IMG/VR virus record: IMGVR_UViG_3300032053_007844
Coordinates: 1 to 33,485 of that record
Length of the DNA: 33,485 nt
Direction: 5' to 3' (one strand)
From: a virus
Positions 2,454-32,854 of the stretch are shown in pieces. The notes beneath the pieces are model-generated. The model saw nothing but the letters and a program-made list of their open reading frames with translations, made no database searches and was not told where the DNA came from. Positions within the stretch are counted from its first letter, which is position 1; every line of letters starts with the position of its first letter. Both the position numbers and the translations under genes were made by a program.

Positions 2454-2480
2454 ACTCGCATCCTCCACTGACCGAGGTAC

Positions 2481-2859: not shown

Positions 2860-2937
2860 TCAGCGGTGGCCCGCGCACCCGGCGATGAAGGCCAGGGCCA
2901 ACGACAGGGCCGCCAAGATGTACCGCCCCCACCTCAT
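2860..2937 (-). CDS. Very small lipoprotein (25 aa), Rz1-like candidate
   Basis: A 25-codon ORF starts at an ATG overlapping the stop of the upstream 78-residue gene (ATGA). It encodes a complete lipoprotein signal: basic start (Arg-Trp-Gly-Arg), a hydrophobic core, and a lipobox Phe-Ile-Ala-Gly-Cys at residues 17-21. Only four residues follow the cysteine. Tiny outer-membrane lipoproteins of this kind occur as the outer spanin partner in lysis cassettes, and a membrane coiled-coil protein lies about 1 kb upstream. The mature peptide is shorter than known outer spanins, so it could instead be a lysis- or entry-related micro-lipoprotein. Confidence 0.5.
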   Translation of the reverse strand: MRWGRYILAALSLALAFIAGCAGHR

Positions 2938-3170: not shown

Positions 3171-3183
3171 GGGCTGCTCTCCT

Positions 3184-3909: not shown

Positions 3910-3920
3910 GCCTTTCTCCT

Positions 3921-5031: not shown

Positions 5032-5397
5032 CTATGCTCCGAACGGCTTGAGTTCACTGATGATGTTGCCGTGGATGGTGGCCGCGATGTGGTCGGCGAC
5101 GCTGCCAAAGAGTTTCGGCACGACGCCGACCGCGAACAAGTGCGGTGTCGCCAAGGGCCGCGAGGCTCCCCCGGTCGCCGCGCAGTAACGGTTCTCCGCC
5201 CGTTTGCCGGCAGCGTCCGTCGCGCCCGTAATCTTCACCTGCATGGCCACCTCGGGGCTGATGTCAAAGTCGGTCATCTCGACCTGCTCGGCCGCCAAGA
5301 GCGCGTGTGCGGTCTCCACGCCGCCAAGGTACAGTGTGAACTCGACGCCAAGCGTCGCGTCGCCAGACGCGACTTCGCCATGAAACGGGATCTTCAT
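5032..5397 (-). CDS. Hypothetical protein (121 aa)
   Basis: A 121-residue protein starting at an ATG that overlaps the stop of the giant polyvalent gene (ATGA), so it is translationally coupled to it. The first half is beta-like with acidic patches, and the middle has Ala/Gly-rich segments. No motif or membrane segment was recognised. Placement after the polyvalent gene and before the beta-rich appendage gene suggests a small virion or assembly protein. Confidence 0.6.
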   Translation of the reverse strand: MKIPFHGEVASGDATLGVEFTLYLGGVETAHALLAAEQVEMTDFDISPEVAMQVKITGATDAAGKRAENRYCAATGGASRPLATPHLFAVGVVPKLFGSVADHIAATIHGNIISELKPFGA

Positions 5398-8300: not shown

Positions 8301-11300
8301 TACCCGCGTCTGCGCCTTGTTCTCCCGGTCGATGGCCCGGTCCATGACGTCGGCCAGAGACCGCAGGTGGGCGGGGTCGCGGCTGCTCTCTGCTGACGCC
8401 CGGAGTTGCGCCCCAACGTCGCCCGCAACCATCCGCTCGGCTTCGGCGGCATCGGCTTCCTTCACGAGTTGGTCGAGGAAGTCGCTGGGCATGTCGCCCT
8501 TGAACCCGCTCTCGGCGGTCTCCTTGGCGTCGATGATCGCCCCGTCGATGCCGCGGGCCTGCTTCTTCCCCGTGAAGTCGAAGAACTTCCGGAGGTACGG
8601 GCGGCCCGCGCAGGCTTCCTTGATCTCCGTCGCCATCTCCGCGCCCTTCCGGGCGTCGATGACGGTGCTGCGCATCCAGTCGAGGAGCGGCGTCTGCGCC
8701 CGCGACGGTGCTTCGGCGATGAGGGGCTTGGCCTGGCCCTCGACTTCCTTCCGGTATCGCGTGGCCTCGCGCATGCTTTTCAGGGCTTGCTCGACTTCGG
8801 GCACGGAGTTGAGGTCGCGTTCCCCAACCGCGTTCAGTTTGTCCACCATGCGGGGCATGTCGGCGGGCTTGAAGGACCGGAGAAGGCTCGACACGCGCTT
8901 ACCGGCGGGGGCGGCCTCGGCGTAAGGTTCTCCGGCAGGCTTCTCGGCCTCGGCTTCCGGCGGCTCAATGACTTCGCGGCCCATCTCCCGTTCGGCCTCG
9001 GCGGCTGCTTCGACCTCAAGTTCCTCGCGCGTCGGCTCGCGCGGTTCCTCGCCAGGCTCGCGCGGAAAGGTCGAGGCGGTCTCCTCGCGGTACAGCCGCA
9101 TGGCCCGCGCCCACACGCGCCTGAGATGCGGCCGGATTCTCTCCCCGAGGTCCGCCACCATCTGCTTCGCCCAGGCAGCGAAGTTGCGCAACCCCTTCTT
9201 GATGTAGAGGTAGCCCAAGTCTACGGCGTCATTGAGCGGTCCCAGTCCGATGCCGCTGACGCCGCCCGTGGCCGACTTCTTCGCACGCGCCTTGGCGGCC
9301 TCGATGTCGTCGAGAAGTGTCGCCCCGCCCTCCCCTTCCATCGTCGTCCGGCTGGCGTTCCATGCCCTGAGTTCACGGTCCTTGGGGCCGGCGATTCTCT
9401 CGGCCTCACTCCAACCGCCAGCGACAGATGCCCAATCGAGGCCGGTTCCGGCTAGTTCCTTGCGCTTTGGTGCCGCCTTCCCGGCCAACCATGCCCTGAC
9501 GCCCAAGGTTTCCTCGGCGTTCGGCTTCCACTTGCCAGCACTCAGGATGCGTTCGGCCTGGTCGTAGTCGTGAGGCATCAAGCCGTACCCGTCGGGTTCG
9601 CCAGGCATCCCTTTAGGCTCGGCTTCGGGCGGCGGTCCCGGTTCTTTGGGAGGTTCCGCGAACCCCATCTCCTTCTGCTTCCCCGTCACCTTCTCGAACG
9701 TCGGCTTGCCGAGAAGGTCGCGCGCAGGTTCGGGCGGGGCAGGTTCACCCAACGTCGGCGAGTGCGTGACGACCTTCCCGCCCGGCTGGACTTCGGTGTA
9801 CGCCTGGTTGAACGGCGGCGGCGCATCCTTGATGACAAGCCCCTCGGACGTGGCGTAGATGAACTTCGACTTGTCAGACTTGAACCGCTGGGCAGCAGCG
9901 ACAGCGGACTCGATGCTGGCCTTCTGGTAGGTGGCGCGGCGAACACCCTTCGCTTCCCCCCTGCCCTCTGGCGCTGCGGCTGCCTCGGGCCGCGCTGGCT
10001 CTGGCGGCGGTTCGAGTTTCGCAAGGGCGGCGTAGTCGGAACGATTCCCGGCGGCGGGTCGAACTCGTACAGGGAAATCCTTTTCTCCTCTCGCTATGGC
10101 CCCTGCTATCCTGTGGCTTCCATCCGTAATCCTGATTGTGCCATCAGGCAGAAGCATGCCTTCGGCCGGAGTCCGCGGAGCCTTCTTGGGGGCGCGCCCC
10201 TGAATTGTCACACCGCCAACCAGCCGTTGAGCGACAGTCGCGTCCTTGCCCAGGAGAGCCGTTGACACTCTTTGAACACGACCGTCGATGGCGAAATCTG
10301 CGAACTCTTGCGCTGTCATCTCCCACGGCTGCTTGCCCTCTGGAGCGGGGCCGGGCGCGGGTTGCGCAGGGGCCGCTTCCGCCGCGCGCTTGGCGATCCG
10401 CGCAAGGCGCTTGGCCTTCGCAGGGAGCACGGGAGGGGGGGGAACGGCAGCGGGAGTCGGCAGTTTGCCCCCGGCGGCACCGGAGGCGGCAGGATTAGGG
10501 CGCGGAAGGGAGAGTCCGTTCTCCTCTACAATTTGTGCAGCGAGGGCGATGTTCTCTAGGTTGGGCGGAAGATGATATTTTGCTTCAAGCCTCCTGAAAT
10601 GTTCTCGATTGGCGAGAATTTGGTCGGCGGCTGCGTCGGCGGTGAGTTTTCGAGATGACACAACCCAGTCCGAATGGGGGTTGTCGCCGGAAGAATAAGT
10701 TAATACGTAACCGTAGCGGTGTGGAACAACGCCGTTCTCGGGCGGCAATGTGTAGACGATCTCACGCATGGGTTCCGACTCTGTTGCCACGCGCGGAAGA
10801 GGATGATCTTCAACCACAAGGCCGTTGGCCTCAGCAATGTATTCGGTAACATCCTTTGAAATGCCATCGATACTCCCAACGCCTGGTTTTCGGATGCGAA
10901 TGATCGGAGCGCGTGCTATCCCGGCCGCTTCGGCGACACTATACTCCCAAGTCGGTTTAGTTAAAAGGTCAGCGCGCTCGGGATCCCATTTACGGAAGAG
11001 ATAGTCGGCATGAGGCAGCCAACTGGCCAACTCTTGAGCCGTGGGAGGAGCCGCACCTGTTGTGCTCTCGGGCGGCGACCAGTTTGGTCCGTAGTAATTA
11101 TAATACGCCCGTTCGCGGTTCATCAGCCAAGAACGAATATCGTAATGCCGTTGGCTGTCGAACTGTGGTTCTCCACCGCCGGGCCGTGGGGTTTCTTGCG
11201 GCGCTTGTCGGCCCGCCCCGCCAGTAGTCACGCCGCCAGTATCGAACACGGGTCTCGTTTTGTCAACCCCCGGCGCAACCGCCTTCGCAGGCTGCGTTAC

Positions 11301-12557
11301 AGGCGCGGCGGGGGGCACTTCTTGAGGGACTGCCTTAGCCGCGGGCGCAGCGACGACTGGCGGCCTTCCTGGCGCTTCTGGCGCTGCCGCAGGGGCCACG
11401 TTAGGGGCCTGTGGGGGTTCCACGGGCGATTTCGGACCCCTGAGAGCGGGGACACTCGGGGACACATTTTGTGGCCCTGGCGGGGCCGAGAATGCCGTTT
11501 TGCTCGGAATGTGTCCCTCAGAGATGTCCCCGGCGGGGACAGATTTGGCGGCCTCGACGGGCGGCTCCTGGGCCACCTTGGGCTCTGTCGCGTCCAGAAT
11601 CTCCCCGATGCGGCTCATCCGGCCGCCAATCCGTGTCGACCGCCCCGTTGGCGCAGGCAACCCGACGATTTGGGGCAAAATCGGCGGTCCAGGGGCCTGA
11701 ATCGGCGGCACGGTGCCCGCTTTGGCCTCGAAAGGCAGCATTTCGCCGGTTGGCGTCGACCATCGCAGGCCCTCAATCGGCGGCGCGGCCATGCCCGGCT
11801 GAGCCAAGGGGATGCCGGGCGGCTCGAAGCGGGGAATCTCAGGAACCGGGGGCCGCAGGATGCCCGCGCGCCTGAGAACTGCCCTCGCCCCCATGCCGAC
11901 AAGGTGCCCGGCGACCGGCAAGGCCCCCATCATGGCCCCGCTCTCCGCACCGCCAAGGGCGATCTCGAACGGAGTAGTGCCCGGCTGTGCCGCCGTCTCG
12001 GCCGCACCCATCCCCGCGCCGATCGCGCCCCACCTGAGCGCGGGCGGGCCTACCTTGGCGAGAAATCCGGCAGTCCTCGGGACGGCGGCACCACCGCCCG
12101 TCGCCAAGAGTGGTATCGACGAGCCGATCAGTTCCGTGCCGACATCCTTCCACCATTCGGGATTCTTGAGTGCGCCCAAGCCCTCTTTCGCCAAGGTCGG
12201 TTCGGCTTCCTTGCGCGTCTGCAACAGGCGGTAAGCCTCGGCCGCGTCGCTGGTGTCCAAACCGACGGCGGCTCCGGCGCGCGCGTATAGCCCAAGAGCA
12301 GTCTCGGGGGCACCCCAGCCCATCGACTCCACGAACTTCTCGCCGCGCGTGCGTGGTGGCAACTTCTGTGGGGCGTAGGGCAGCCCCGGAGCCCGAAGGA
12401 GTTCCTTTTCTTGGGGCGAGCGAAACTCCTCCGGTTTCTGAAGGGCGGCCTGTTGGAACGGCGTCAGAGAGGCGGCGGCCTGTGGCTCCGGTTGGGCCGT
12501 GGCCGTGGCCTGCCCTGCCCCCGCTGTCCCGAACGCTATCTCGAACGGCGTCGGCAT
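5394..12557 (-). CDS. Giant polyvalent virion protein (2387 aa) with ParB-like domain
   Basis: A 2387-residue protein, probably packed in the capsid and injected with the DNA. Residues 1-240 hold Gly/Ala-rich hydrophobic segments like phage ejection proteins. A Pro/Ala-rich linker follows (about 250-460). An unassigned module at about 466-690 is encoded by less GC-rich DNA. A ParB/sulfiredoxin-type domain lies at about 742-836, with the motif Asp-Gly-Ser-His-Arg-Ile-Ala-Gly. A Tyr-Ile-Lys-Lys-Gly-Leu-Arg-Asn-Phe segment near 1115-1145 is common in phage polyvalent proteins, and a coiled coil spans about 1405-1510. Residues about 1985-2305 resemble the C-terminal domain of large polyvalent proteins, with hydrophobic stretches. 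The phrase 'TPFEIA' recurs at residues 3 and about 195. No lysozyme or transglycosylase motif was seen. The ribosome site is weak. Confidence 0.75.
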   Translation of the reverse strand: MPTPFEIAFGTAGAGQATATAQPEPQAAASLTPFQQAALQKPEEFRSPQEKELLRAPGLPYAPQKLPPRTRGEKFVESMGWGAPETALGLYARAGAAVGLDTSDAAEAYRLLQTRKEAEPTLAKEGLGALKNPEWWKDVGTELIGSSIPLLATGGGAAVPRTAGFLAKVGPPALRWGAIGAGMGAAETAAQPGTTPFEIALGGAESGAMMGALPVAGHLVGMGARAVLRRAGILRPPVPEIPRFEPPGIPLAQPGMAAPPIEGLRWSTPTGEMLPFEAKAGTVPPIQAPGPPILPQIVGLPAPTGRSTRIGGRMSRIGEILDATEPKVAQEPPVEAAKSVPAGDISEGHIPSKTAFSAPPGPQNVSPSVPALRGPKSPVEPPQAPNVAPAAAPEAPGRPPVVAAPAAKAVPQEVPPAAPVTQPAKAVAPGVDKTRPVFDTGGVTTGGAGRQAPQETPRPGGGEPQFDSQRHYDIRSWLMNRERAYYNYYGPNWSPPESTTGAAPPTAQELASWLPHADYLFRKWDPERADLLTKPTWEYSVAEAAGIARAPIIRIRKPGVGSIDGISKDVTEYIAEANGLVVEDHPLPRVATESEPMREIVYTLPPENGVVPHRYGYVLTYSSGDNPHSDWVVSSRKLTADAAADQILANREHFRRLEAKYHLPPNLENIALAAQIVEENGLSLPRPNPAASGAAGGKLPTPAAVPPPPVLPAKAKRLARIAKRAAEAAPAQPAPGPAPEGKQPWEMTAQEFADFAIDGRVQRVSTALLGKDATVAQRLVGGVTIQGRAPKKAPRTPAEGMLLPDGTIRITDGSHRIAGAIARGEKDFPVRVRPAAGNRSDYAALAKLEPPPEPARPEAAAAPEGRGEAKGVRRATYQKASIESAVAAAQRFKSDKSKFIYATSEGLVIKDAPPPFNQAYTEVQPGGKVVTHSPTLGEPAPPEPARDLLGKPTFEKVTGKQKEMGFAEPPKEPGPPPEAEPKGMPGEPDGYGLMPHDYDQAERILSAGKWKPNAEETLGVRAWLAGKAAPKRKELAGTGLDWASVAGGWSEAERIAGPKDRELRAWNASRTTMEGEGGATLLDDIEAAKARAKKSATGGVSGIGLGPLNDAVDLGYLYIKKGLRNFAAWAKQMVADLGERIRPHLRRVWARAMRLYREETASTFPREPGEEPREPTREELEVEAAAEAEREMGREVIEPPEAEAEKPAGEPYAEAAPAGKRVSSLLRSFKPADMPRMVDKLNAVGERDLNSVPEVEQALKSMREATRYRKEVEGQAKPLIAEAPSRAQTPLLDWMRSTVIDARKGAEMATEIKEACAGRPYLRKFFDFTGKKQARGIDGAIIDAKETAESGFKGDMPSDFLDQLVKEADAAEAERMVAGDVGAQLRASAESSRDPAHLRSLADVMDRAIDRENKAQTRVVEAVEPYIMVRREADIERLEANLTEARKAIESETAKARAEERATAATQVEEVSKKYETALREARDEIGKIRRETSAARRLGKAEAGAAGVRTRLIALVEKLPPEVKQKMFRRVSRARTTSQLESALSLADKYFEEHLKRSVIDRIQKTAGKFGKVAPYMHTEEAKALLSEARNMRGIGRRNLMGRELDELESIDARLAEGLYQTQEAGRLLVGEKRQAVDDAVREFVGEIEGRTKPLPERYEMAGFARRAWRWMVRHGIQHTPNNLLAVSGEGGTGKKVFDDRIWDGVNASRKETLGSDKRLRKACSDAGFPWHSKELATYLDEPVTMELPEAGRRTMSRAHWIDLYLDTLDPHTSRELEKAGFRTRERLAEHHIPMPLEAQDFVGASLDVPTKKFAEALGAALREPGERMSAVNRQLTGRDLEIRPAWWSILRDYWLEHFQYEPVFWHQFGLRLKETMGIAKPRTGGGYSVVVENAFEKYLRVARQQASFIGLGEPLRDAAMVAGHPEFKQAVVRNLGADWLKELDRYLNAVSNMGGRPMSPLETAMEGWLKMAAGGLLANPWSALRQLDAPAFVAGKMDTAYLLKGMAAAASHAKQSVAEMTEHSPGAWLLYNETPYSLVTPPIGERYQRYGRKPLREYLMSPLIMGDKLGRAQVWEAVKAETEALHPEFKAGTPEYWESVAKRFDRLSDETQPTDNPQFLPGLARAARGSPALRPIVFLQSQNAQVLNRLIESVTRFRQNPTAPGALKALLVSLAAMGIVSPAYQVMVNKAREKVYAGFQPQKNAPWGGVAMDMVETNLSNVYLLGDLVHAARSKSGDMRGSPWGEVAQGGMRGFGDVMHALNQWKDDDPKARATGLRAAERLARSIGTLVGVPVAFPLGLGKGIYRMGGGGPADDEVDALQAADESEPVAQAALERIVRRGWTLAKARTIVRSRARREGWAPDVLTRRLTALSQRWRRQQRSIK

Positions 12558-23180: not shown

Positions 23181-23498
23181 TCAGAGCCTTATCTTTTCCC
23201 GCTCTCTCACGCGGTCTATAGCGGCGCTCAGCAGTTCGCCGCGGGCCTTCCCGCGCCGCCGCTCAAGAACCTTCCGCTCATGGCCGGTCAGGAACACGAT
23301 GCCCTCGGCCTCGCGCTGCTTCACATCCTCGCGCGTCTCGGTCGGCTTCCCCAAGATGCGCCCGTGGTCGCGCAAGGGGTTGTTCGTGTCGGTGTGAAGT
23401 GCAGGCCCTTGCCGTTCCTCGCGCTGCTCCTTGCACCCGCAGGCCGCCCCGCCCTTCACCCATTCGTGACACCGCGAGCAAATGTGGCCGAGTGTCAT
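23181..23498 (-). CDS. Small zinc-finger-like protein (105 aa)
   Basis: Starts at ATG overlapping the portal stop (ATGA). It has Cys7-x2-Cys10...Cys20-x-Cys22, a possible zinc knuckle, followed by a long charged helix (Arg/Glu-rich) to the C-terminus. Its location between portal and scaffold is conserved for small assembly proteins in phages. No enzyme motif is seen. It may help portal or scaffold assembly, but this is inference. Confidence 0.65.
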   Translation of the reverse strand: MTLGHICSRCHEWVKGGAACGCKEQREERQGPALHTDTNNPLRDHGRILGKPTETREDVKQREAEGIVFLTGHERKVLERRRGKARGELLSAAIDRVREREKIRL

Positions 23499-25435
23499 GG
23501 AGCACCTGCCGGTACGGGCACGGCCTGCTGAGCCGCCGGCGCCGAGACTGTTTCCGCACCGCCGGGCGGCCCGACCACGGGCGCAGGGGGTATCAAGGAT
23601 TGTGCATCAGGCAGGATGGACTCGAACTCGCCCAGGTCCTGCATCGCCAACACTTTACGCGCGGCTTCAATCTGCTTCTCCAGGCCCAGGGGACCAAGGG
23701 CCGCGAGAACCGGCTGAATCATCATCCGGTACGTCGCTATGAACGTCCCGATCTTCTCCTGCCGCTGAGCCCGCTGCGTGCTGCCGTGCTCGATCTCGAC
23801 GTTCAGGCGGAGCCTGAGCACGTCCAGGGGCAGGTGTTCCTGCCAATACTGGGCGAGTTCCGGCCCGACCATCGCATCGACGCCGAGTTGCACGAGGTCG
23901 CCGCCAGCGATGAGCACCTGTTCCGCCTGCGCCCAAGGCATCGGCGGCTGCACCTGCCCGGCGGCGTCTTCAACGATGCTCCACTTGGGCAGGATGACGT
24001 GGCACATGACGAGCAGGCGCCACTGGCCCTCGGCCAAGGCGTTCTCCCAGGCCCGAAGCCGCACGTTCGACCGGGCGCTCGCTGCGTCGGCCTGAATGCG
24101 CTCGGCCGTCGCCGTCTGGTCGGATTCCTCAGCCATCTTCACCTTCGGCAGGCCCGAAGTTTCCTCGTGGATCGCCTTCAGTTGGTCCGGCCACTGTTCC
24201 ATCGCGGCATTGTACTTCCCGGTCTCGATGGCAACGATCATCGGCTCGCCGCGCTCGTCAACCATGCCAGGCATGACCATGCGGTCGGGGCTCGACATGA
24301 TTTCCTTCACCTGTTCGTCAGTCAGTTTGCAGCCAGAGCGCGTCCCGAAGAGGATCTTGTAAATCCCTTCCATCCAGCGAGCGGCGCCGCCCACGGCCCG
24401 CTCGTAGAGTTCGAGGCACTTCTGCTCGTGCCGGAAATCGCTGAACCCGGCAATGCGGTTGAAGGATTCCTGGTAGGCAAGGCGCAGAACCGGCCACTCG
24501 TCGTATCCCAGGCCAAGCCCCGCCGGCCAATCGTCCTCGTCCTTTAGGGTGCCGTCGAATCCCTCGACGACCTCGATGTGCCGCCGGGCTTCGCGCATGC
24601 CCTTCCTGTCCCTGTAGCGCTCGATGTGCGGCTTGTCCGCAACGAGCGGTTCCTTGTCGTACAGCGCATAGACACCACGCGCGAAGATATGCCACACCTT
24701 GCACTTGGCCTGAGATTCGCCCGCGACCTCTTTGCCCTTCGAGCGCTTCATCAGGGCCTCGCCGCTGAGTTCCTTGGCGTCGGGCGCGTCCTTGGGCTTC
24801 ACGGCGGCCTTCTTGAGTTTCTGAAGGTCCAGTTCGGGGTTGCGTTTCCAGACTTCTTCGGGGGCCTCCATCTGGAAATACGCCAACCATCCGGCCCGGG
24901 TGAGGTTGCCGTTACAATCGGCGTCCCACCGCACATTCTCGTTCTCGATCTGTTGGGCTTGCGGCAGGCTGGTGCGGTAGTCGGTCGAAAAGAGGAGCCA
25001 CCCAAGGCCCGACGTATCGGCCGAGTGACGCCACCGGCCAAACTCCGGCCGTAGGCCCTGTTCCTCGCACAGCCAGGCCAGGACTTCCTGATCGCACTCC
25101 GCAGTTTTCTTGGCGATGGGGTTGTCGGCAAAGGGTTTGCGGGCCTTGACGACTACGCGCGCAGGTTCCTCGTCCAGAAACGCGGCTTGGGTATCGACGC
25201 GCATCCGCCAGCGGTTCGTGACCGGGCGGCTGCCCTTCTTGGACTCGCCCTCGTAGGCAAGCCGGGCCTCGTCCCATTCTTCTTCAGGCAGGACTTCGCC
25301 CGTCTCCACAAGGCCGAGGAAATACTTGGCGATCTTCACGGGGTCCGGCGGAAGGGGCGCATCGGCGTCGTCGGCGTCGGGTCCGACGCCGAGAAAGCCT
25401 TTGACTGCACCAACGACGGTACCCAGTACGCCCAA
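23495..25435 (-). CDS. Portal protein
   Basis: A 646-residue protein with the size and layout of a podovirus portal: an acidic N-terminal helical region, a central alpha/beta domain with Asp-Cys-Asn-Gly and Trp-rich segments, a long wing/stem, and an Ala/Pro-rich C-terminus. The frame stays open to 25513, but that part overlaps the terminase gene. The TTG at 25435, eight bases after TTGGAG, is the likely start, five bases past the terminase stop. It follows the terminase nuclease, the normal order. Confident as portal by position and length; not verified by search. Confidence 0.7.
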   Translation of the reverse strand: MGVLGTVVGAVKGFLGVGPDADDADAPLPPDPVKIAKYFLGLVETGEVLPEEEWDEARLAYEGESKKGSRPVTNRWRMRVDTQAAFLDEEPARVVVKARKPFADNPIAKKTAECDQEVLAWLCEEQGLRPEFGRWRHSADTSGLGWLLFSTDYRTSLPQAQQIENENVRWDADCNGNLTRAGWLAYFQMEAPEEVWKRNPELDLQKLKKAAVKPKDAPDAKELSGEALMKRSKGKEVAGESQAKCKVWHIFARGVYALYDKEPLVADKPHIERYRDRKGMREARRHIEVVEGFDGTLKDEDDWPAGLGLGYDEWPVLRLAYQESFNRIAGFSDFRHEQKCLELYERAVGGAARWMEGIYKILFGTRSGCKLTDEQVKEIMSSPDRMVMPGMVDERGEPMIVAIETGKYNAAMEQWPDQLKAIHEETSGLPKVKMAEESDQTATAERIQADAASARSNVRLRAWENALAEGQWRLLVMCHVILPKWSIVEDAAGQVQPPMPWAQAEQVLIAGGDLVQLGVDAMVGPELAQYWQEHLPLDVLRLRLNVEIEHGSTQRAQRQEKIGTFIATYRMMIQPVLAALGPLGLEKQIEAARKVLAMQDLGEFESILPDAQSLIPPAPVVGPPGGAETVSAPAAQQAVPVPAGAP

Positions 25436-25439
25436 GTGG

Positions 25440-26465
25440 TCAACTCCAAGGCCCGGCAGACTTCGCCTCTCGTCGCTTATCACTTTCGATGATACGCCTG
25501 AGGATGTCCACACTGGGCTTTGGCTTCGAGGCCGCTTGCCACCTTACGGCGGTGGTCTGGACGGCATACCGGACGACATCGGGCCCTTCGTCGTCCACGT
25601 CCACGAAATCAGCGCTTGGGGCCTTGAACGCCGGGTCGCCAACCTGCGGTTTCCATCGGAAATTGAGGCATTGTTCGTACAAACTGGGGTTCTCGCCCGC
25701 GCAGGCCGGGTCGAACCAAATGGCGGGTTCCTGGGCGAGTTTCATGGCCAAGGATTGGTCCATGACGGGCGCAGCCAGGGCCTCCTGCAAAATGTTCAGG
25801 TCACGTCTCCAAATTGCGAACCGGGCGATGGCCGAAATGAACCCGCTCGTCATCCTGTCGTACCCCACGCGGCTGTTGTCGGCAGCACTCAAGGGCAGGC
25901 CCGCCTTGGCGTAGGCGTCGGCCCATAGTTCGCCCGTCAGCGCGTCACGCTGCCAGATCGAGGGGTCGGCTACGGTCGCCTGCACTTCCTCGTCGTGGGG
26001 CGTCAGGCGCAGAATCTCGGCGGCGTTCGCGGGCACCGTCGCGTCGGTGCGGTAGTACTGGCGGAAGAAGAAGCGGTCGCCGTCGGTGTTCACCGCGAGC
26101 CAGGCACAGCACTCAGGGTGTCTCATCCCGTGGTCGAGGCTCCGGTAGACGGCCCACGCGGCGGAGCCCCGTTCCGCGAACAGGCGGACGTGAATCTCGC
26201 GCCTGAGCATCGGCCAGACAGGTTGCCCGCGGCGAGTGAGGCGCCGGAGCATGTTCTGCTGCCACCACACCGATCCGACTCCGCCGTAGGGTGCGGACTT
26301 CTCCGCAACCCATCTGTCGTCATGGCTGGGGTCGTCGCCGTAATCGACTTCCTGGACGAGACAACCGTGGGAGAGTCTGCGGGCCCGGCACGAGAAGCCC
26401 GGCAGGTGCAGGTCGGGCGTCCCCGCGAGGATCACGGCGCGGGTGCTAGAGTGCTCGCTTGCCAT
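25440..26465 (-). CDS. Large terminase subunit, nuclease domain (split)
   Basis: A 341-residue protein carrying the linker and nuclease half of a phage large terminase. The linker (about 20-85) has Tyr-Gly-Asp-Asp-Pro and Trp-Trp-Gln-Gln elements and Gln-Pro-Val-Trp-Pro. Nuclease residues are visible: Asp111 (Leu-Asp-His-Gly), Asp167 (Ala-Asp-Pro-Ser-Ile-Trp) and Asp296 (Pro-Asp-Val-Val-Arg-Tyr). The Gly-Leu-Pro-Leu...Asn-Ser-Arg-Val-Gly motif also fits. The ATPase half is a separate gene at 30115-30969. The ATG at 26465 overlaps the preceding gene and lacks a clear ribosome site, so coupling is probable. It cleaves concatemeric DNA during packaging. Confidence 0.8.
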   Translation of the reverse strand: MASEHSSTRAVILAGTPDLHLPGFSCRARRLSHGCLVQEVDYGDDPSHDDRWVAEKSAPYGGVGSVWWQQNMLRRLTRRGQPVWPMLRREIHVRLFAERGSAAWAVYRSLDHGMRHPECCAWLAVNTDGDRFFFRQYYRTDATVPANAAEILRLTPHDEEVQATVADPSIWQRDALTGELWADAYAKAGLPLSAADNSRVGYDRMTSGFISAIARFAIWRRDLNILQEALAAPVMDQSLAMKLAQEPAIWFDPACAGENPSLYEQCLNFRWKPQVGDPAFKAPSADFVDVDDEGPDVVRYAVQTTAVRWQAASKPKPSVDILRRIIESDKRREAKSAGPWS

Positions 26466-27081
26466 CGGCCGCCGGCATCTTCATGTCGAAATGCGTTCCA
26501 AGCGCGACAAACTGGGCCGTCCACCAGGCGAACATCTGGTGCTCGAACTCCCACCGCTTCTCGCTCCGGTTCTGCTTCTCGCCTTCCGCCGGCGTGTTGG
26601 CCCCGTCCGTCCCCGCCATGTCATAGCCCCGCAGGGTGAGCACCTTGGGCCGGTAGAGGTACGCCAGGCCAAGGGCCGACAGGCCCCCCAGCGTGTTCCA
26701 CACCGGGAGTGTCCCCGGCTGCGGCCCGTAACCCGGCAGGAACACGTCGTAGCACATGACCGTGCGATCCGCGCACCGGGGAATCAGGTCTTGCAGGTGC
26801 TCGCCGTTGAACCTCGGCCACCAGCAGAACTTTTTCCACAGGGCGTTCTCCCGACAGGCCCCGAAGTCGGCGTCAACGTAGTCGCGCCTCGTGAAAATCC
26901 AGGGTCGGCCGATGGGCGTGTACTGCGTGAAGGGCCGGGCGTCCACCATGACCCACCAGTCGCAGGGCGTCCGCTCGACGACGGAGTTGACGCCGATCAC
27001 GATGTCGGCCTGATCGACCATGTGACAATCTTCGTGGAAGTCCTTGACGGACGGACCCTGGCTCACGATGGTCACGCGCAT
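26446..27081 (-). CDS. DUF115-like protein (211 aa), cassette member
   Basis: ATG 27081 follows AAGGAG (8-base spacing); an ORF extension to 27222 lies inside the upstream gene. Residues 4-15 (Ile-Val-Ser-Gln-Gly-Pro-Ser-Val-Lys-Asp) resemble the nucleotide-binding start of DUF115 / surface-glycan associated proteins. Then come Ile-Gly-Val-Asn-Ser, a central Trp/Tyr-rich part, and Thr-Leu-Arg-Gly-Tyr-Asp-Met near residue 155. The C-terminus ends inside the nuclease gene's start. It overlaps the GT2 gene and the nuclease gene, so the cassette is one translational unit. A role in glycan modification is inferred from the neighbours. Confidence 0.55.
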   Translation of the reverse strand: MRVTIVSQGPSVKDFHEDCHMVDQADIVIGVNSVVERTPCDWWVMVDARPFTQYTPIGRPWIFTRRDYVDADFGACRENALWKKFCWWPRFNGEHLQDLIPRCADRTVMCYDVFLPGYGPQPGTLPVWNTLGGLSALGLAYLYRPKVLTLRGYDMAGTDGANTPAEGEKQNRSEKRWEFEHQMFAWWTAQFVALGTHFDMKMPAADGKRAL

Positions 27082-27827
27082 GACGCCCTCTCCTTCGCAA
27101 GCCGCTCGTTGTGTAGTCGGCACAGTTCCAGATATTGTGAGTGCCCCATGTTCGGATACCGCTTCGTCATCTGTTGCCGGTGTTGGCGGTAGCCGTACAG
27201 CGGTTCGGGCACGTGCGCCCACTTCAGGCCCCCGATGTTAAGCGCCCGGAAGTTCCAGTCGCTGTCGGGCGCAAACATCCACTTCGGGTCAAACAGGCCC
27301 ACCTTCTCATAGACCCGCGCCCAAGCCGTGAGCGAGCCGCAACAAGGACCGTGACACTTGTTGCCGTGGCCGTAGTTCTGCGGTTGCATTCCGCTGACCG
27401 CAGGAACCTCTTGCCTGTCGTGGGGCGCCCCGGCCCCCGACTCGGCAAAGACGTACATGCCGGTTGAGGCGATGTCGGCCCCCGCCTCCAGCAGGGCCAT
27501 CTGCTTCTCGATTCGCGTCGGGTCCTGAACGTCGTCGGAATCCAGGCGTGCGATCACCTCGGCCCCGGCCGCCATCGCCCGCCGAAACGCCTCATTCATG
27601 GCGCCGACCGAATGGTCGCCTTGATGCTGTATCGTGGTCACGGTCGAATCTCGCAGGCCATAGGCATGCAGGGCCGCGAGGGCCTCAAGAGCGGTGTCGT
27701 CGCTCGAGCCGTCGTCCACGACGATGACCTGGCACAGGCCGTAAGTCTGTTTGGCAATCGAGCGTATGGCCTCGCCGATGAATCGGGCGGTGTAGTAGGC
27801 CGGCATCACGAACCAGACTTTGCGCAT
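27072..27827 (-). CDS. Family 2 glycosyltransferase (251 aa)
   Basis: ATG 27827 with GAGGAG six bases upstream. The GT-A fold signs are clear: residues 7-9 (Val-Met-Pro), 36-44 (Val-Val-Asp-Asp-Gly-Ser-Ser-Asp-Asp) for the nucleotide, and Leu-Asp-Ser-Asp-Asp (95-99) for metal and sugar binding. The C-terminal part has Tyr-Glu-Lys-Val-Gly-Leu-Phe-Asp, as in GT2 enzymes, and Tyr-Gly-Tyr-Arg-Gln-His. It is probably cytoplasmic; no membrane helix was seen. It adds a sugar to a glycan or protein; the acceptor is unknown. It overlaps the radical SAM gene by 22 bases and lies between the terminase halves. Confidence 0.75.
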   Translation of the reverse strand: MRKVWFVMPAYYTARFIGEAIRSIAKQTYGLCQVIVVDDGSSDDTALEALAALHAYGLRDSTVTTIQHQGDHSVGAMNEAFRRAMAAGAEVIARLDSDDVQDPTRIEKQMALLEAGADIASTGMYVFAESGAGAPHDRQEVPAVSGMQPQNYGHGNKCHGPCCGSLTAWARVYEKVGLFDPKWMFAPDSDWNFRALNIGGLKWAHVPEPLYGYRQHRQQMTKRYPNMGHSQYLELCRLHNERLAKERASCA

Positions 27828-29074
27828 TGCTCGCTCCTCGGTTGTCGCTGCGTGAGACGGCCTCGGAACTTCGCCGTCAGGCGCCGCTGCCATTCCTGCA
27901 AGCGGGCGTTCGCGACGGTGCGGGTCGCCCAGAAGTCGTTCTGGTACTCGTCGGTTTCTTCCCATCGAATCCCGCCCAAGGCGTCGCGGTCCTGGGCGTG
28001 GTAGAACGTGCCGGGATAGGGACACAGGATGGTGAACCCGTACTCGTCGAGGTCAAGATGTTCCGCGAACCGCTCGGTCTCCTCAAGGTCTTTCTCGGTC
28101 TCCTCGGGAGCGCCCAGGATGAAGTAGCCCCGAACATGCAGACCGGCGCCCTTGGCAAGAAGGCACGCCCGCGAGATCGTCTCGCGCGTCGTCGCCTTCC
28201 CGATACCCTTCAGGACCGGGATCGACCCGCTCTCGACGCCGATGCCAATGGTCCGGCAACCCGCCTCGTACATCGCGGGGAACATTGGCTCATCGACAAG
28301 ATTTGCGTGGATGTTGGCAAACCACGGGAGGGCCGCGATGGCGCTTCGCCGCTTGGCGGCGCAAAACGCGTGGACCCAGCCTGGGGCGGCATTCCAGGTG
28401 GGGTCGCAGAACTTGAAGAAGTCGAGTTTGTACTGCCGGGCCACGACCGCGATCTCGTCGACGAGGTCTTGAACCGGGCGACTGCGGCAGGCGACAACCC
28501 GGCCGCCATACAGCGCCTTCGCCGCCCCGTCCGCGCAGAACTTGCAGGAGAACGGGCAGCCGCGGTGGGCCTGAAACGACGTGATGCGCAGGCCGTTCTC
28601 CCGGTAGGCGACCCCGATGTTGCGCTCGGTGCGGATAAGGCGCCGGTTGGGCCACGGCAGTTCCTCAAAGTCCATCGGTCGGCCGGTGACAACCGGATCT
28701 CGCAGGCCCTTCACGATGTCGAGGAGCGCCTGCTCGCCCTCGCCCCGAACAGCCTGGTCAAACCCTGCGGCAAGACACTCTGCCGGCAGAGCCGACGCAT
28801 GGTATCCGCCGATGACCGTTCGCGTGCGGTGGCTGACCTCATGGATCGCGGCCGACAGACGGACGGCATGGGCGACGGTCGGCGACGTGCAGGAGAAGGC
28901 TACGATGTCGGCCTTGGCCCCTGCCGCGATGATGTCAGAGTCGTCGTCGAAGCAACCTTGGAAAAACCCGAACTTTACTTCGGGCTCATGGTTGTGCACG
29001 TAGGCCGCCAAGTAGCCCAGGCCCAGGGCCTCCCAGGAGTTCGCGTACCGGCCGTGGACGAGGACGACCTTCAT
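27806..29074 (-). CDS. B12-binding-domain radical SAM enzyme (422 aa)
   Basis: ATG 29074 overlaps the previous stop (ATGA); the frame further upstream is read-through. Residues about 1-125 form a B12-binding-type Rossmann domain (Ala-Asp-Ile-Val-Ala-Phe-Ser-Cys...Ile-Gly-Gly-Tyr-His-Ala-Ser), without an obvious Asp-x-His-x-x-Gly. The radical SAM cluster motif is Cys-Pro-Phe-Ser-Cys-Lys-Phe-Cys at about 172-179. Downstream motifs (Gly-Ile-Gly-Val-Glu-Ser-Gly; Gly-Tyr-Phe-Ile-Leu-Gly-Ala-Pro-Glu-Glu-Thr) are typical of B12-radical SAM proteins. It likely methylates or rearranges a carbon substrate. The substrate is unknown; the neighbours are glycosyltransferases. Confidence 0.8.
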   Translation of the reverse strand: MKVVLVHGRYANSWEALGLGYLAAYVHNHEPEVKFGFFQGCFDDDSDIIAAGAKADIVAFSCTSPTVAHAVRLSAAIHEVSHRTRTVIGGYHASALPAECLAAGFDQAVRGEGEQALLDIVKGLRDPVVTGRPMDFEELPWPNRRLIRTERNIGVAYRENGLRITSFQAHRGCPFSCKFCADGAAKALYGGRVVACRSRPVQDLVDEIAVVARQYKLDFFKFCDPTWNAAPGWVHAFCAAKRRSAIAALPWFANIHANLVDEPMFPAMYEAGCRTIGIGVESGSIPVLKGIGKATTRETISRACLLAKGAGLHVRGYFILGAPEETEKDLEETERFAEHLDLDEYGFTILCPYPGTFYHAQDRDALGGIRWEETDEYQNDFWATRTVANARLQEWQRRLTAKFRGRLTQRQPRSEQCAKSGS

Positions 29075-29682
29075 GGCGTGCTCACTTGTTTGCGGAATCG
29101 CCTGCTGGCCTGCCCGTGCGCAATCACCGGCTCGCGCTTGCCGTAGTGCATCTCGCTTATCCGGTCCATCCAGCAGTATTCGGGCGGCAACTCGAAGATG
29201 CTGGCCTGCGGGAAGCGGGCCAGGAGAAGTTGGAGCGCCTCTTGGTCCACGCCCAAGAGTTTCTCGGTCTCGGGCTTCCGGCACTCGACAAACCATGCCT
29301 CAAGAATCGCGTCGGCGGTCGGCGTAGCCGCCCACCACGTTGTGCCAGTGCAGAGTTCGCGCTTGTCAGGAGTGACCGAGCGGGGCGAGTTAGGAAGCCA
29401 GTACAAGCCCGCGTCGAATCCTTCCTCTGCGAGACCCGCCAGGCGCACAGGCAACGTCGTCACGCGGGCATCAGCGTCCAGGAACATAATGTCCTCGTCA
29501 GGATGCCGCCGGCGCGTTTCGAGAATGACCAACGGAAAGAGGCACGCGGCCTTGGCCCAAGTGCCCGGATGCGGGTACTCCCTGACATCGTGCTTGAGGC
29601 CGAACTTGTCGAGCGTGGCGACGAGTTCCTTGGCCTCGGCCTCGTAGGGCGTGCCTGCCGTCCAGAAGGAAGTGACGATCAT
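29071..29682 (-). CDS. Nucleotide-sugar transferase-like protein (203 aa)
   Basis: A 203-residue GT-A type protein. It begins with Ser-Phe-Trp-Thr-Ala-Gly-Thr-Pro-Tyr, contains the metal-binding Asp-Ala-Asp (69-71) after Ile-Met-Phe-Leu, a Gly-Val-Asp-Gln motif near 145, and an Ala-His-Gly-Gln-Ala-Ser near 190, all usual in nucleotide-diphospho-sugar transferases. Its start overlaps the stop of the 144-residue gene (ATGA) and its end overlaps the radical SAM gene. It probably uses UDP- or GDP-sugar; donor and acceptor unknown. Confidence 0.7.
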   Translation of the reverse strand: MIVTSFWTAGTPYEAEAKELVATLDKFGLKHDVREYPHPGTWAKAACLFPLVILETRRRHPDEDIMFLDADARVTTLPVRLAGLAEEGFDAGLYWLPNSPRSVTPDKRELCTGTTWWAATPTADAILEAWFVECRKPETEKLLGVDQEALQLLLARFPQASIFELPPEYCWMDRISEMHYGKREPVIAHGQASRRFRKQVSTP

Positions 29683-30113
29683 GGCTTCGCCCCCGGACCC
29701 GGAGTGGATACTTGCTTCGGCCGGATGAGGCGGGCGGGGGGGTAGCGCCCGATGGGCCGCTCTCGCAGAGGGACGGCCGGATCGAATAACCGGACCTTGT
29801 AGACATAGCCCGGTTCGACGCCGGGAATCTCCACCTCGTCCTCGTCCTTGCCGCTGTCAGCGCACACGCCGACAACCTCGGCCGGGACCTGAACTTGGCG
29901 CTTGCCCCGCTCTGCCCAGTCGAGGATGAACACGCCGCCGACGGGCTTCCTGAGGTCGATGGTCTGCGCGCCTTTCGCCGGCAACGGCGGCCGCGGCAAG
30001 TCCGGCACTTCCTCCCACCCGGGCGGTATGGGGTACTCGACCGGGCCGTCCATGACGACGTCGAGGTCGTTGCCGTCGGTCATGCCGCCTGTGTTCGGTT
30101 GTCGCTTAGGCAT
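29679..30113 (-). CDS. Hypothetical protein (144 aa) following the terminase ATPase
   Basis: ATG 30113 with AAAGGAG seven bases upstream, one base after the stop of the ATPase gene. The N-terminal half is Pro-rich (many Pro pairs); the middle holds Val-Phe-Ile-Leu-Asp-Trp and a short beta-type domain (about 60-130); the end is Pro/Lys rich. No homologue was recognised. It is the first gene of the segment between the terminase halves, so it may be part of the inserted cassette or a packaging-associated protein. Confidence 0.6.
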   Translation of the reverse strand: MPKRQPNTGGMTDGNDLDVVMDGPVEYPIPPGWEEVPDLPRPPLPAKGAQTIDLRKPVGGVFILDWAERGKRQVQVPAEVVGVCADSGKDEDEVEIPGVEPGYVYKVRLFDPAVPLRERPIGRYPPARLIRPKQVSTPGPGAKP

Positions 30114-30114
30114 C

Positions 30115-30969
30115 TCACTTCTCCTTTCCGAGTTTGTCCGGCAAAAACGTCTGCCAGAACCATCCGAAGTCCGCGCTCCCGATGAGCGTGATCCGCTCGA
30201 CTGCCGGCAGAGCCTGGTGATAAGCCCCCTCGATCTCGTCCTGTAACTGGGCCTCGTCGCAGACGAGCCAGGCTGGGGTGTGGGACTGGACCATGTGCGC
30301 GCCCTGCGGGGCCGCCACGATGACGCTGCCGTTCGTGAACTCCAACCGGGTCGCTGCGCCCGGCCCGATGCGCTTGGCGCCGTACCACGGGGCAAAGTCC
30401 TGCATCCTGGTGTAAACCCCGTTCGCGCGCCAGAGCATGGCCGCCGCATCTTCCTCGCGCTTCGATTGAAACATGTACAAACGGCCACCCAATAGCAGGG
30501 CTTCGCCCAGGATATAGCAGACCACAACCCAGGTCAGCATCATCTGACGCGACTTCGGCCACGCGCTGAACCACTCGTGCCACAGCCAGTAAACAACACT
30601 TCTGAGATAACCGACGGATGGCAGGCGATGGTACGCCGACGTCCAACCCTTCGAGACCCAATGGGCATCCTCCGTGTACACGTAGTTCGCCATCCAGTAC
30701 CACGGAGACCGCCGACACCGCATGAGTTCCTGCGCCTGCGCCTCCGGCGACTTCCCCAGCGCCCGCCAACCTTCGCGGGTCCGCACCGGTCGCAAGAGGG
30801 CCTGCATCGACTCGGCTCCGCACACGCACGTCGTCCGCTCTGTCACTTCTCCGCGTCTCGTCCAGGTGGCCCGGGTAAGGTCGGCGCCGCAGGCCGAGCA
30901 TGCCGGACACACAGGCGCGACAATTCGCGAATCGAGGGACCACGGCACGAGAGGCGGCGGATCGTTCAA
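30115..30969 (-). CDS. Large terminase subunit, ATPase domain (split)
   Basis: A 284-residue protein carrying the motor half of the terminase. An N-terminal zinc-ribbon-like region (Cys21, Cys24, Cys27, Cys48, Cys50) precedes the ATPase. The Walker A-like segment is Trp-Pro-Lys-Ser-Arg-Gln-Met-Met (137-144), a deviant form seen in phage terminases. Walker B is Val-Cys-Asp-Glu (236-239), followed by a coupling motif Ile-Gly-Ser-Ala-Asp-Phe-Gly near 263-269. It ends at residue 284, just after the ATPase fold, without the nuclease. The start is a TTG overlapping the small-terminase stop (TTGA). The nuclease half is at 25440-26465. Confidence 0.8.
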   Translation of the reverse strand: MNDPPPLVPWSLDSRIVAPVCPACSACGADLTRATWTRRGEVTERTTCVCGAESMQALLRPVRTREGWRALGKSPEAQAQELMRCRRSPWYWMANYVYTEDAHWVSKGWTSAYHRLPSVGYLRSVVYWLWHEWFSAWPKSRQMMLTWVVVCYILGEALLLGGRLYMFQSKREEDAAAMLWRANGVYTRMQDFAPWYGAKRIGPGAATRLEFTNGSVIVAAPQGAHMVQSHTPAWLVCDEAQLQDEIEGAYHQALPAVERITLIGSADFGWFWQTFLPDKLGKEK

Positions 30970-31421
30970 GGGTCATCTTTCTTCGGCTCCGGCGACGGGT
31001 GCCCGTCTACGTCGGAATCGTCCAGCCCGTCGAGGATGCGCACGCCCCCCTGGTGCCGCACGTCTACGCGCTCGCGGAACTTCTCAGGCCGGTGCGCCTT
31101 CAGCAGGAAAATCGCCAACACGTCTGAGTATTCTTTCACATGGCCGACGAGCACGCCGCCTTGGTACACTGGCCGAGACACGCCATGCATGGCCCGACGC
31201 CGGGCCTCGGTCTCAAGTATGTCCACGCTCTGCTCTATGGCATCGTCCCAAGCCGTTGCAAACTCGGGGTGCGCCTCGCGGGCCTCGTACACGTACTGCC
31301 GGTTCATGCGGACAGCCGCCGCCGCCGCAGTGACATTCGGGTCTTTGGCAAGCGCCACGAGAAACGCTGGCATCCAATCGAGCAACCCTTTTTCTCGTGT
31401 CGGGTTCGTCGGGGCGCTCAT
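30966..31421 (-). CDS. Small terminase subunit
   Basis: The start at ATG 31421 overlaps the upstream stop (ATGA); the upstream extension to 31502 lies in another gene. The 151-residue product has an N-terminal helix-turn-helix (Asn-Val-Thr-Ala-Ala...Met-Asn-Arg-Gln-Tyr-Val-Tyr, about 30-50). Its second half has Ser-Asp-Val-Leu-Ala-Ile-Phe-Leu-Leu-Lys-Ala-His-Arg-Pro-Glu-Lys, a hallmark of phage small terminases of this type. It recognises the packaging site and recruits the ATPase. It is directly coupled to the ATPase gene. Confidence 0.75.
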   Translation of the reverse strand: MSAPTNPTREKGLLDWMPAFLVALAKDPNVTAAAAAVRMNRQYVYEAREAHPEFATAWDDAIEQSVDILETEARRRAMHGVSRPVYQGGVLVGHVKEYSDVLAIFLLKAHRPEKFRERVDVRHQGGVRILDGLDDSDVDGHPSPEPKKDDP

Positions 31422-31723
31422 TGCATCGACGGCCGCCGTGGCGGCCCTCCGGGCAGCAAGATCTTGGGCTTGTTGAGCAGCTCCAGCGCCATCCTCTCCC
31501 ACTCAGGCCAGCGCTCGAATACCTCGCTCACATGGTCGGCGCCGGGTTCTTGGCTGAGCAATACGGCGGCCACGGGCACCATAACCTGCATCGTCTGGAC
31601 GCCGCCTGCCGTGGGGCGGTGCAGGAGCACCTGCGCCCGGAAGGCCTCCTCTGCTTGCGTACTCTCCCGGTAGACGACGTGTCCCTCGTCGTCGCGGAAG
31701 GTCTCAACGTGCCAGATCGCCAT
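31418..31723 (-). CDS. Hypothetical protein (101 aa) upstream of the small terminase
   Basis: ATG 31723 with AAAGGAG 5-6 bases upstream; the extension to 31921 lies in the sigma-like gene. The 101 residues start with a compact beta-type segment (Ile-Trp-His-Val-Glu-Thr-Phe), followed by helical Met/Val/Glu-rich stretches and a Pro/Arg-rich end. No motif was recognised. Its coupling to the small terminase suggests a DNA-packaging accessory. About 90 bases upstream of it are gene-free and show no clear promoter. Confidence 0.55.
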   Translation of the reverse strand: MAIWHVETFRDDEGHVVYRESTQAEEAFRAQVLLHRPTAGGVQTMQVMVPVAAVLLSQEPGADHVSEVFERWPEWERMALELLNKPKILLPGGPPRRPSMQ

Positions 31724-31814: not shown

Positions 31815-32309
31815 TCATCCGTTTGCGTCCTGGGGCATCCTGGCGCTCTGTCGCAGGCGTTCAAGGCCCTTTGTACGCAGAAGCCAGACATCTGAGCGGC
31901 AGCGCCGCATGACCTCGGCAATCATGCCCACAGGCAGGCACAGGTTGCCCGCCAAGCCGTAGTACAGAATCAGCACGACGGCCTCGGCCGGCCGCACCCG
32001 GCGCAGGTCCACGTCCAGCAGTTCGCCCTTCTCGTGCCGCGCCGCAACCGGGACGCGCTGAAGGTCTCGATGCCGGACCTCCTGGCGCATGGCATCCAGC
32101 ACCGCCCAGCGGACCCGGCGCCAGCCGTGCGTCGAGAGTCCCGCCATCGACGGCTGCCACGACCGCACCGCCTCACACAGCGCCAGATTGCCTACGCTGC
32201 GGAGATCGTCGCGCAGGGACCGCGGGAAACTCCTGACGATGCTGCCGATGAGGCCCTGGTTGTCGAGCACGATCGTCCGCTGCTCGGGCGACAGAGGGTA
32301 CTGCGACAT
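31815..32309 (-). CDS. Sigma-70-like transcription factor (164 aa)
   Basis: The start is uncertain: ATG 32309 has no strong ribosome site, while an in-frame GTG 11 codons upstream lies 9-10 bases after GGAGG. Residues about 10-75 match sigma region 2 (Asn-Gln-Gly-Leu-Ile-Gly...Asp-Asp-Leu-Arg-Ser-Val-Gly-Asn-Leu-Ala-Leu-Cys-Glu-Ala-Val...Trp-Ala-Val-Leu-Asp-Ala-Met-Arg). Residues about 105-160 resemble region 4. It is small for a sigma factor but fits phage-encoded ones. It is likely to redirect host RNA polymerase to late promoters; no matching promoter set was identified in the window. Confidence 0.65.
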   Translation of the reverse strand: MSQYPLSPEQRTIVLDNQGLIGSIVRSFPRSLRDDLRSVGNLALCEAVRSWQPSMAGLSTHGWRRVRWAVLDAMRQEVRHRDLQRVPVAARHEKGELLDVDLRRVRPAEAVVLILYYGLAGNLCLPVGMIAEVMRRCRSDVWLLRTKGLERLRQSARMPQDANG

Positions 32310-32344
32310 GGTTGCCCGTCTGGCTGCGCGTCTCTCAATCACTC

Positions 32345-32854
32345 TCAGAAATCCCTCCACTCCCATTCGCCTTCAATCACCGCCTGCCGCCACAGTTCCA
32401 GCGCCGCCCGCAACTCGTACCCCTCGGCCCTGAGCATCACCCCTACGCCCTCGACGTGCATCTCGGCCTCGCGGTGCTTGAGCATGGCCATCTCCGTGAT
32501 AGCCTCGGCGCGCTCTGCGGCGCTCTGCGGTTCGAGGGCCTGGACGCTCCATATGTGCTCCAGGATCTCTCTTAGGCCATCGGTGGCAAAAGGCGGGAGC
32601 TTGCGCGACCCGAGCCATGTATGGACTAAGGTTTCAGCCTCTTCGAATTTCGCGGCCTTGTACCACAGGGCCGCCGCGCTGAGGGCCGTGACCCCAAGAG
32701 TACGGAGTTTCGATTGGTCTAGGCCCAACAGGGCCTTCGACTCAGCCCGAGCCGCAAGCGCGTACAACTCCCGCGCACGGTCAGTCTCTCCTCTGTGTGC
32801 TGCGAGTTGCGCCTCAGCTGCGTGGCGCTCGCTTTCGGTATGATGGTCGGTCAT
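32345..32854 (-). CDS. TPR-like helical protein (169 aa)
   Basis: ATG 32854 overlaps the previous stop (ATGA). The 169 residues are a run of helix pairs: Ala-Ala-His-Arg-Gly-Glu-Thr...Ala-Arg-Glu-Leu-Tyr-Ala-Leu-Ala-Ala, then Ala-Ala-Leu-Trp-Tyr-Lys-Ala-Ala-Lys-Phe-Glu-Glu-Ala-Glu, typical of tetratricopeptide-like repeats. I associate the Thr-Leu-Gly-Val...Ala-Leu-Trp-Tyr-Lys-Ala pattern with bacterial (non-phage) proteins of unknown function. Such repeats bind partner proteins. It was probably acquired from a host genome. Confidence 0.6.
   Translation of the reverse strand: MTDHHTESERHAAEAQLAAHRGETDRARELYALAARAESKALLGLDQSKLRTLGVTALSAAALWYKAAKFEEAETLVHTWLGSRKLPPFATDGLREILEHIWSVQALEPQSAAERAEAITEMAMLKHREAEMHVEGVGVMLRAEGYELRAALELWRQAVIEGEWEWRDF

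What the first reader, a model, noticed from the sequence alone, without database searches (positions are those of the whole stretch)
25440..30969. Large terminase split into two genes with a radical SAM/glycosyltransferase cassette in between
The ATPase half (Walker B Cys-Asp-Glu, coupling motif) ends at a stop just after the ATPase fold, and the nuclease half (Asp111, Asp167, Asp296) is a separate gene 3.65 kb downstream. Between them lie five same-strand genes: an unknown, a nucleotide-sugar transferase-like protein, a B12-radical SAM enzyme, a GT2 enzyme and a DUF115-like protein. The genes overlap or abut, so the cassette is built into the packaging operon. Terminases interrupted by introns or inteins are known; a coherent metabolic cassette at the domain boundary is unusual. 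The split parts may reassemble in trans, and the cassette could modify the virion, the DNA or the host surface.
Basis: partly seen in the sequence, partly recalled or inferred. Interest (0 to 1): 0.85.

Follow-up and report, generated by a model that had tools for sequence, protein, structure and literature searches.

The report
Two-gene packaging motor with sugar-gene cargo
This uncultured virus makes its DNA-packaging motor as two separate proteins, an ATP-driven engine and a DNA cutter, a layout shared by dozens of other viruses in public data, and in this one five genes, mostly sugar-related, sit between the two; it matters because the best-studied motor (phage T4) stops pumping DNA when its two halves are not joined.

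Summary
A gp17-type TerL ATPase (30115-30969) stops just after the coupling motif. A separate gene (25440-26465) carries the linker and RNase-H nuclease with all three catalytic Asp. Five overlapping same-strand genes fill the 3,649 nt between them. The explanation needs changing: the cassette did not break this terminase; the split belongs to an old lineage. An IMG/VR scan for the ATPase motif KSRQMMx[ST]W gave, window included, 82 loci with separate ATPase and nuclease genes against 27 with one full-length gene. Gaps run from 4-nt ATGA overlaps to 3.65 kb (this window). In four loci the nuclease gene comes first, which splicing or frameshifting cannot explain. The halves share their history (Mantel r 0.86; best of 2,000 permutations 0.24). 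No Rfam intron is present. The nearest relatives keep ATPase - cargo - nuclease - portal; one carries a CMP-sugar synthetase and a relative of the window's last cassette gene, another three glycosyltransferase-like genes. Most likely the halves assemble in trans as a two-chain motor, and the junction is a cargo site, here holding a glycan/radical-SAM cassette of inferred function. I found no published case of this unspliced two-gene layout.

The parts
30966..31502 (-). Terminase small subunit (TerS)
   Evidence: phrog_4044 E 4e-34; stop overlaps the ATPase start as TTGA
30115..30969 (-). TerL ATPase gene (284 aa, TTG start): KSRQMMLTW, Walker B CDE, coupling motif GSADFGWF, then stop
   Evidence: phrog_5989 E 4e-10; profile to T4 gp17 92-299 E 2e-20; RB49 gp17 105-304 E 1e-15
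29679..30113 (-). u144, unknown protein; good ribosome-binding site (AAAGGAG)
   Evidence: no Pfam/PHROG hit; sequence
29071..29682 (-). 203-aa protein with a DADA (DxD-like) motif, nucleotide-sugar transferase-like (weak)
   Evidence: PF03407 E 0.078, below cut-off
27806..29074 (-). B12-binding radical SAM enzyme (CxxxCxxC)
   Evidence: PF02310 E 3e-17, PF04055 E 1e-15; NCBIfam B12/rSAM families, all below their cut-offs
27072..27827 (-). Family 2 glycosyltransferase
   Evidence: PF00535 E 5e-21
26446..27081 (-).
   Evidence: no Pfam hit; phrog_4603 E 0.02; 25% identity to the L140 protein, E 2e-3 and 2e-4 in two searches; model too poor to use
25440..26465 (-). TerL linker + RNase-H nuclease gene (341 aa), D111/D167/D296
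   Evidence: tblastn to TerLs; profile to D6E, P22, SPP1 terminases; AlphaFold + Foldseek
23495..25513 (-). Portal-like protein (start uncertain, ORF overlaps the nuclease gene)
   Evidence: homologue follows the nuclease gene in L140 (E 4e-106), L107 (E 1e-53) and L244 (E 9e-50); identity as portal inferred from position and size

Best explanation
This phage encodes a two-chain large terminase. Chain 1 is the ATP engine of a gp17-type TerL, ending after the coupling motif. Chain 2 starts with the linker/lid ('transmission') segment and carries the RNase-H nuclease. Shown: both chains keep their catalytic residues, lie in one tightly packed operon (TerS - ATPase - cargo - nuclease - portal), share their evolutionary history, and belong to a lineage of split terminases in which the junction may be empty, filled with different genes, or reversed in order. 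Inferred: the chains assemble without a covalent bond on the portal into a working motor, held by the engine-transmission and engine-nuclease surfaces that in T4 lie within one chain. Inferred: the junction tolerates insertions because it is already a gene boundary, and successive phages have loaded it with cargo. In this phage the cargo (GT2, a DxD nucleotide-sugar-transferase-like protein, a B12-radical SAM enzyme, a 211-aa protein) most likely makes or transfers a modified sugar, on virion, DNA or host surface; the target is not known (about 0.5 for a sugar role of any kind).
For: 82 split loci against 27 full-length in the KSRQMM set, window included; 69 against 19 at <95% ATPase identity; two further loci prove split under code 25. 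Split state is clustered on the ATPase tree: 5 changes against a shuffled mean of 19.1, 0 of 500 shuffles as low. Mantel r 0.857 between halves over 56 loci, permutation maximum 0.244. ATGA overlaps in 9 of 56. Reversed gene order in L185, L186, L205, L163. No second terminase in the record. Cut site maps to gp17 residue ~304, the linker to 319-365. Relatives L140, L107, L244 share nuclease and portal in the same order. Cassette GC (0.63-0.68) equals its flanks.
Against: For T4 gp17, separated ATPase and nuclease domains keep their activities but lose all DNA translocation, and the hinge is called essential (PMC9958956). No biochemical data exist here. All split cases are uncultured contigs, one of them in a bacterial MAG. 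The linker-to-gp17 match alone is weak (probability 4.6%, E 0.009). The window record is a fragment. The cassette's role rests on enzyme families only; three of its five proteins have no profile match above cut-off.
Confidence: 0.82

Rival explanations
1. The two pieces are joined after all: a group I/II intron, an intein, trans-splicing or a programmed frameshift yields one TerL.
For: Published terL genes are split into fragments by group I introns (Jug phages, PMC12363816; Bastillevirinae, PMC11878797). Inteins do occur inside the ATPase gene of two relatives. Abutting ATGA pairs could in principle frameshift.
Against: No Rfam match in window 25000-31600 at E<=1, and none but a tRNA in 12 relatives. 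Five complete ORFs with own starts lie between the halves. Four loci have the nuclease gene first.
Confidence: 0.04
2. The window is a misassembly joining two phages at 26.4 or 30.1 kb.
For: No reads were available to check coverage.
Against: L140, L107 and L244, from separate metagenomes, have the same order ATPase - cargo - nuclease - portal. Both window halves have L140 then L107 as nearest relatives. GC is even and genes overlap across both joints.
Confidence: 0.03
3. The cassette inserted into an intact terL and broke it in this phage's recent ancestry.
For: Insertions of endonuclease genes into terL are known (Enterococcus phage iF6, two VSR endonucleases; PMC10054541).
Against: Relatives with a short gap or other cargo are split at the same place. 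The split state covers most of a deep tree, and the window's two nearest relatives are both split.
Confidence: 0.06
4. The separate ORFs are decaying and a full-length TerL elsewhere in the genome does the packaging.
For: The record is a 33.5-kb fragment with no end repeats.
Against: Catalytic residues are kept in both halves; 44-47% identity to L140 over most of their length. No second TerL in the record.
Confidence: 0.04

Closest known systems
T4 gp17-type large terminase (Terminase_6N / gp17 ATPase)
   Same: ATPase half aligns to gp17 92-299 including the SRQ motif, Walker B and coupling motif
   Different: One chain in T4; here the chain stops after the coupling motif, and the G-K of the gp17 SRQLGKT loop is replaced (SRQMMLTW)
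Phage D6E / P22 / SPP1 large-terminase nuclease (Terminase_3C / Terminase_6C)
   Same: Nuclease half matches in sequence profile and fold, with Asp triad
   Different: Encoded as its own gene, preceded only by the linker
terL genes interrupted by group I introns (Jug phages PMC12363816; Bastillevirinae PMC11878797)
   Same: terL appears as separate ORFs with genes between
   Different: Those are spliced to one protein; no intron found here, and relatives have empty or reversed junctions
Enterococcus phage iF6 terL with two VSR endonuclease genes inserted (PMC10054541)
   Same: Foreign genes next to or within a terL gene
   Different: iF6 leaves a 95-aa fragment judged non-functional; here both parts are complete domains and conserved across a lineage

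Membership tests
Large terminase subunit (TerL) | ASCE ATPase with Walker A-like loop, Walker B and coupling motif | tested here: met
   Profile match to gp17; CDE and GSADFGWF present; loop is the deviant SRQMMLT form
Large terminase subunit (TerL) | RNase-H-like nuclease with catalytic Asp triad | tested here: met
   D111, D167, D296; profile and fold match to D6E, P22, SPP1
Large terminase subunit (TerL) | Genomic context between TerS and portal | tested here: met
   TerS upstream; portal-like gene conserved downstream
Large terminase subunit (TerL) | ATPase and nuclease in one polypeptide joined by a linker | tested here: not met
   Two ORFs 3,649 nt apart, no intron
Large terminase subunit (TerL) | Packages and cuts DNA | not testable with these tools
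   Needs biochemistry
Intron- or intein-split terL | Group I/II intron or intein at the break | tested here: not met
   No Rfam hit; no intein domain in the five gap proteins or the halves
B12-binding radical SAM | B12-binding domain plus radical SAM domain with CxxxCxxC | tested here: met
   PF02310 and PF04055 over cut-off; CPFSCKFC in the translated sequence
Glycosyltransferase family 2 | PF00535 over cut-off | tested here: met
   75.8 bits against 23.3
Nucleotide-diphospho-sugar transferase (PF03407) | Score over curated cut-off | tested here: not met
   13.4 bits against 22; resemblance only
DUF115-like | Profile match | tested here: not met
   No Pfam hit at E<=1; model pLDDT 46, not used

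The most novel reading that the evidence does not exclude
A whole lineage of tailed phages runs a two-protein packaging motor in which the ATP engine and the transmission-plus-nuclease are separate, non-covalently joined subunits, possibly with different copy numbers or an exchangeable nuclease, and the junction between their genes is a cargo-loading site.
Probability: 0.6. Interest if true: 0.86.

Novelty: new variant of a known kind. Interest (0 to 1): 0.77.

Why it matters
In T4, separating the ATPase and nuclease domains abolishes DNA translocation and the hinge is considered essential (PMC9958956). Natural terminases cut between engine and transmission offer a direct test of whether the motor needs a covalent tether, and would let engine and nuclease be varied, labelled or dosed separately. 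It also affects annotation: in searches that expect a full-length TerL, the nuclease gene of these phages looks like an unknown protein (the window's nuclease has no Pfam or significant PHROG hit), and a conserved operon junction turns out to be a recurrent site for accessory genes.

Tried and rejected
Single-sequence IMG/VR scans with the nuclease half, ATPase half and portal found nothing; the motif and alignment scans did. An early worry that the two halves came from different terminase types (nuclease relatives had P-loop ATPases) was dropped once loci with both parts of the same type, split and fused, were found. The idea that 'ILAGTPD' at the start of the nuclease half is a leftover coupling motif was dropped: it is not conserved in L140 or L107. 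The D115 structure model was too poor (pLDDT 46) and was not searched; a scan for D115 relatives found none. The radical SAM protein has only distant phage relatives (Streptomyces phage SF3, 26%) and none in the L140, L107 or L244 records. Queries with five other ATPase halves gave, in the rows listed, only hits of about 31% identity or less, nearly all annotated as terminases; two that were opened (Vibrio phage 1.052.A and phage C48C1) are full-length. Ten literature searches found intron-split terL and an endonuclease insertion but no unspliced two-gene terL lineage.

Full report
What is there. The window is a 33,485-base IMG/VR virus record; its main genes run on the minus strand. From 31,502 down to 23,495 the order is TerS, TerL ATPase, u144, a 203-aa protein, B12-radical SAM enzyme, GT2, a 211-aa protein, TerL nuclease, portal-like protein. 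Junctions from TerS to the nuclease are TTGA or ATGA overlaps, overlaps of 10-22 nt, or a 1-nt gap, so the run reads as one operon, probably translationally coupled. GC content of the five middle genes (0.63-0.68) equals that of the flanks (0.64-0.65).

Identity of the halves. Alone, the ATPase half hits PHROG terminases (E 4e-10). As a profile of 32 relatives it matches T4 gp17 residues 92-299 at E 2e-20, and it aligns to RB49 gp17 105-304, ending just past the coupling motif. The nuclease half has no Pfam or significant PHROG match, but hits annotated TerLs by tblastn, matches D6E TerL 195-416 at E 6e-19 and the P22 and SPP1 nuclease domains by profile, and its model (pLDDT 79.5) finds the same folds. 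Its first part aligns, weakly, to gp17 319-365, the segment that follows directly. So the cut lies between the ATP engine and the transmission/hinge segment, and nothing appears to be missing between the two proteins.

The split is a lineage trait. Most carry an ATPase-only ORF that stops about 140-170 residues after the motif. Iterated profiles for both halves sort the loci, window included, into 82 split, 27 full-length and 10 unresolved. Several of the ten end at a contig edge. Two others, L120 and L197, are split once TGA is read as glycine (code 25), with the nuclease gene directly downstream. At <95% ATPase identity the count is 69 split to 19 full-length. On the ATPase tree the split state needs 5 changes against 19.1 for shuffled labels, none of 500 as low. 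The tree is 'quick' and has long branches, so I do not claim a single origin. The scan selects one motif and says nothing about frequency among all terminases.

The halves act as one evolutionary unit and as separate genes. Over 56 non-redundant loci, pairwise identities of ATPase and nuclease halves correlate at r = 0.857; the highest of 2,000 permutations was 0.244. Gaps are at most 30 nt in 25 loci, 30-300 in 10, 300-1,000 in 15 and over 1,000 in 6; nine have exactly the 4-nt ATGA overlap. The window's 3,649 nt is the longest in the whole set. In L185, L186, L205 and L163 the nuclease gene lies upstream of the ATPase gene; in the two read in detail, L185 and L163, a portal-sized gene follows both. 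Splicing, inteins and frameshifting cannot produce that order. No intron family matches in window 25,000-31,600, and 12 relatives gave only a tRNA.

Cargo at the junction. The closest relatives are L140 (ATPase 47%, nuclease 45%, portal 33% identity), L107 and L244. All keep ATPase - cargo - nuclease - portal. L140 holds a 180-aa protein, a CTP_transf_3 cytidylyltransferase (CMP-sugar synthetase type, E 2e-10) and a distant homologue of the window's 211-aa protein placed, as in the window, directly before the nuclease gene. L244 holds three overlapping genes, two with GT2 domains. L107 has no recognisable enzyme. Elsewhere the gap holds HNH or LAGLIDADG endonucleases, an APS-kinase-like gene, HExxH proteins or a glutaredoxin-like protein (and sequence reading). 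Apart from the 211-aa protein the sugar genes of window, L140 and L244 are not homologous at the level tested, which suggests separate loading of similar functions. That is three cases, too few for a statistical claim.

Mechanism. Shown: two intact genes, conserved catalytic residues, shared ancestry of the halves, operon context. Inferred: the proteins assemble in trans on the portal. The strongest argument against is experimental: separated gp17 domains keep their activities but lose translocation (PMC9958956). Either this lineage has evolved contacts that replace the tether, or the cut site matters, because here the transmission stays with the nuclease and the engine stands alone. The cassette probably makes or transfers a sugar; whether on virion, DNA or host surface is open.

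Comparison with what is known. Known split terL genes are interrupted by group I introns (PMC12363816, PMC11878797) or by inserted endonuclease genes (PMC10054541). I found no description of an unspliced two-gene terL lineage in ten searches of open-access papers; most subscription papers are not covered. Among 50,697 phage records, ATPase halves of this lineage gave, in the rows listed, hits of about 31% identity or less, nearly all annotated as ordinary terminases, and two opened examples are full-length. One split case lies in a contig binned as Candidatus Eremiobacterota. I therefore rate it a new variant of a known kind.

Limits. All evidence is comparative. No reads, no complete genome and no complex model were available. 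The 203-aa and 211-aa proteins and u144 are not assigned by any profile above cut-off.

Noticed in passing
L092 ATPase ORF (533-2038) and L198 ATPase ORF (2402-3979), coordinates on the reverse complement of each locus: The ATPase half of two split terminases carries what looks like a complete intein at the Walker B site (...C|LGPETKVLTSD...ASHN|SDE...).
   Followed up: partly
L120 (301-1008 and 1049-2083) and L197 (2593-3399 and 3501-4529), coordinates in the orientation: In-frame TGA codons fall at conserved glycines; read with code 25 (TGA = Gly, as in Gracilibacteria-type hosts) both halves of a split terminase are intact.
   Followed up: yes
L185, L186, L205, L163: Gene order reversed: nuclease gene upstream of the ATPase gene.
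   Followed up: yes
L099/L237, L110, L112/L241, L117/L236, L092/L230 gap regions: Small proteins with an HExxH-like motif recur between the terminase halves of several phages; no Pfam match for the two tested.
   Followed up: no
L241:1242-1313: A tRNA gene lies directly after the ATPase gene, at the start of the cargo.
   Followed up: no
L257 (JAIORV010000157.1): Split terminase in a 142-kb contig binned as Candidatus Eremiobacterota, overlapping genes with no cargo.
   Followed up: partly
window 5394-12557 (-): One 2,387-aa ORF, about a fifth of the record, with weak matches to DarB-like antirestriction and unknown PHROGs; possibly an internal virion protein.
   Followed up: no
window 31815-32366 (-): Sigma-70 region 2-like protein just upstream of the packaging operon (phrog_351 E 2e-4; PF04542 below cut-off).
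   Followed up: no
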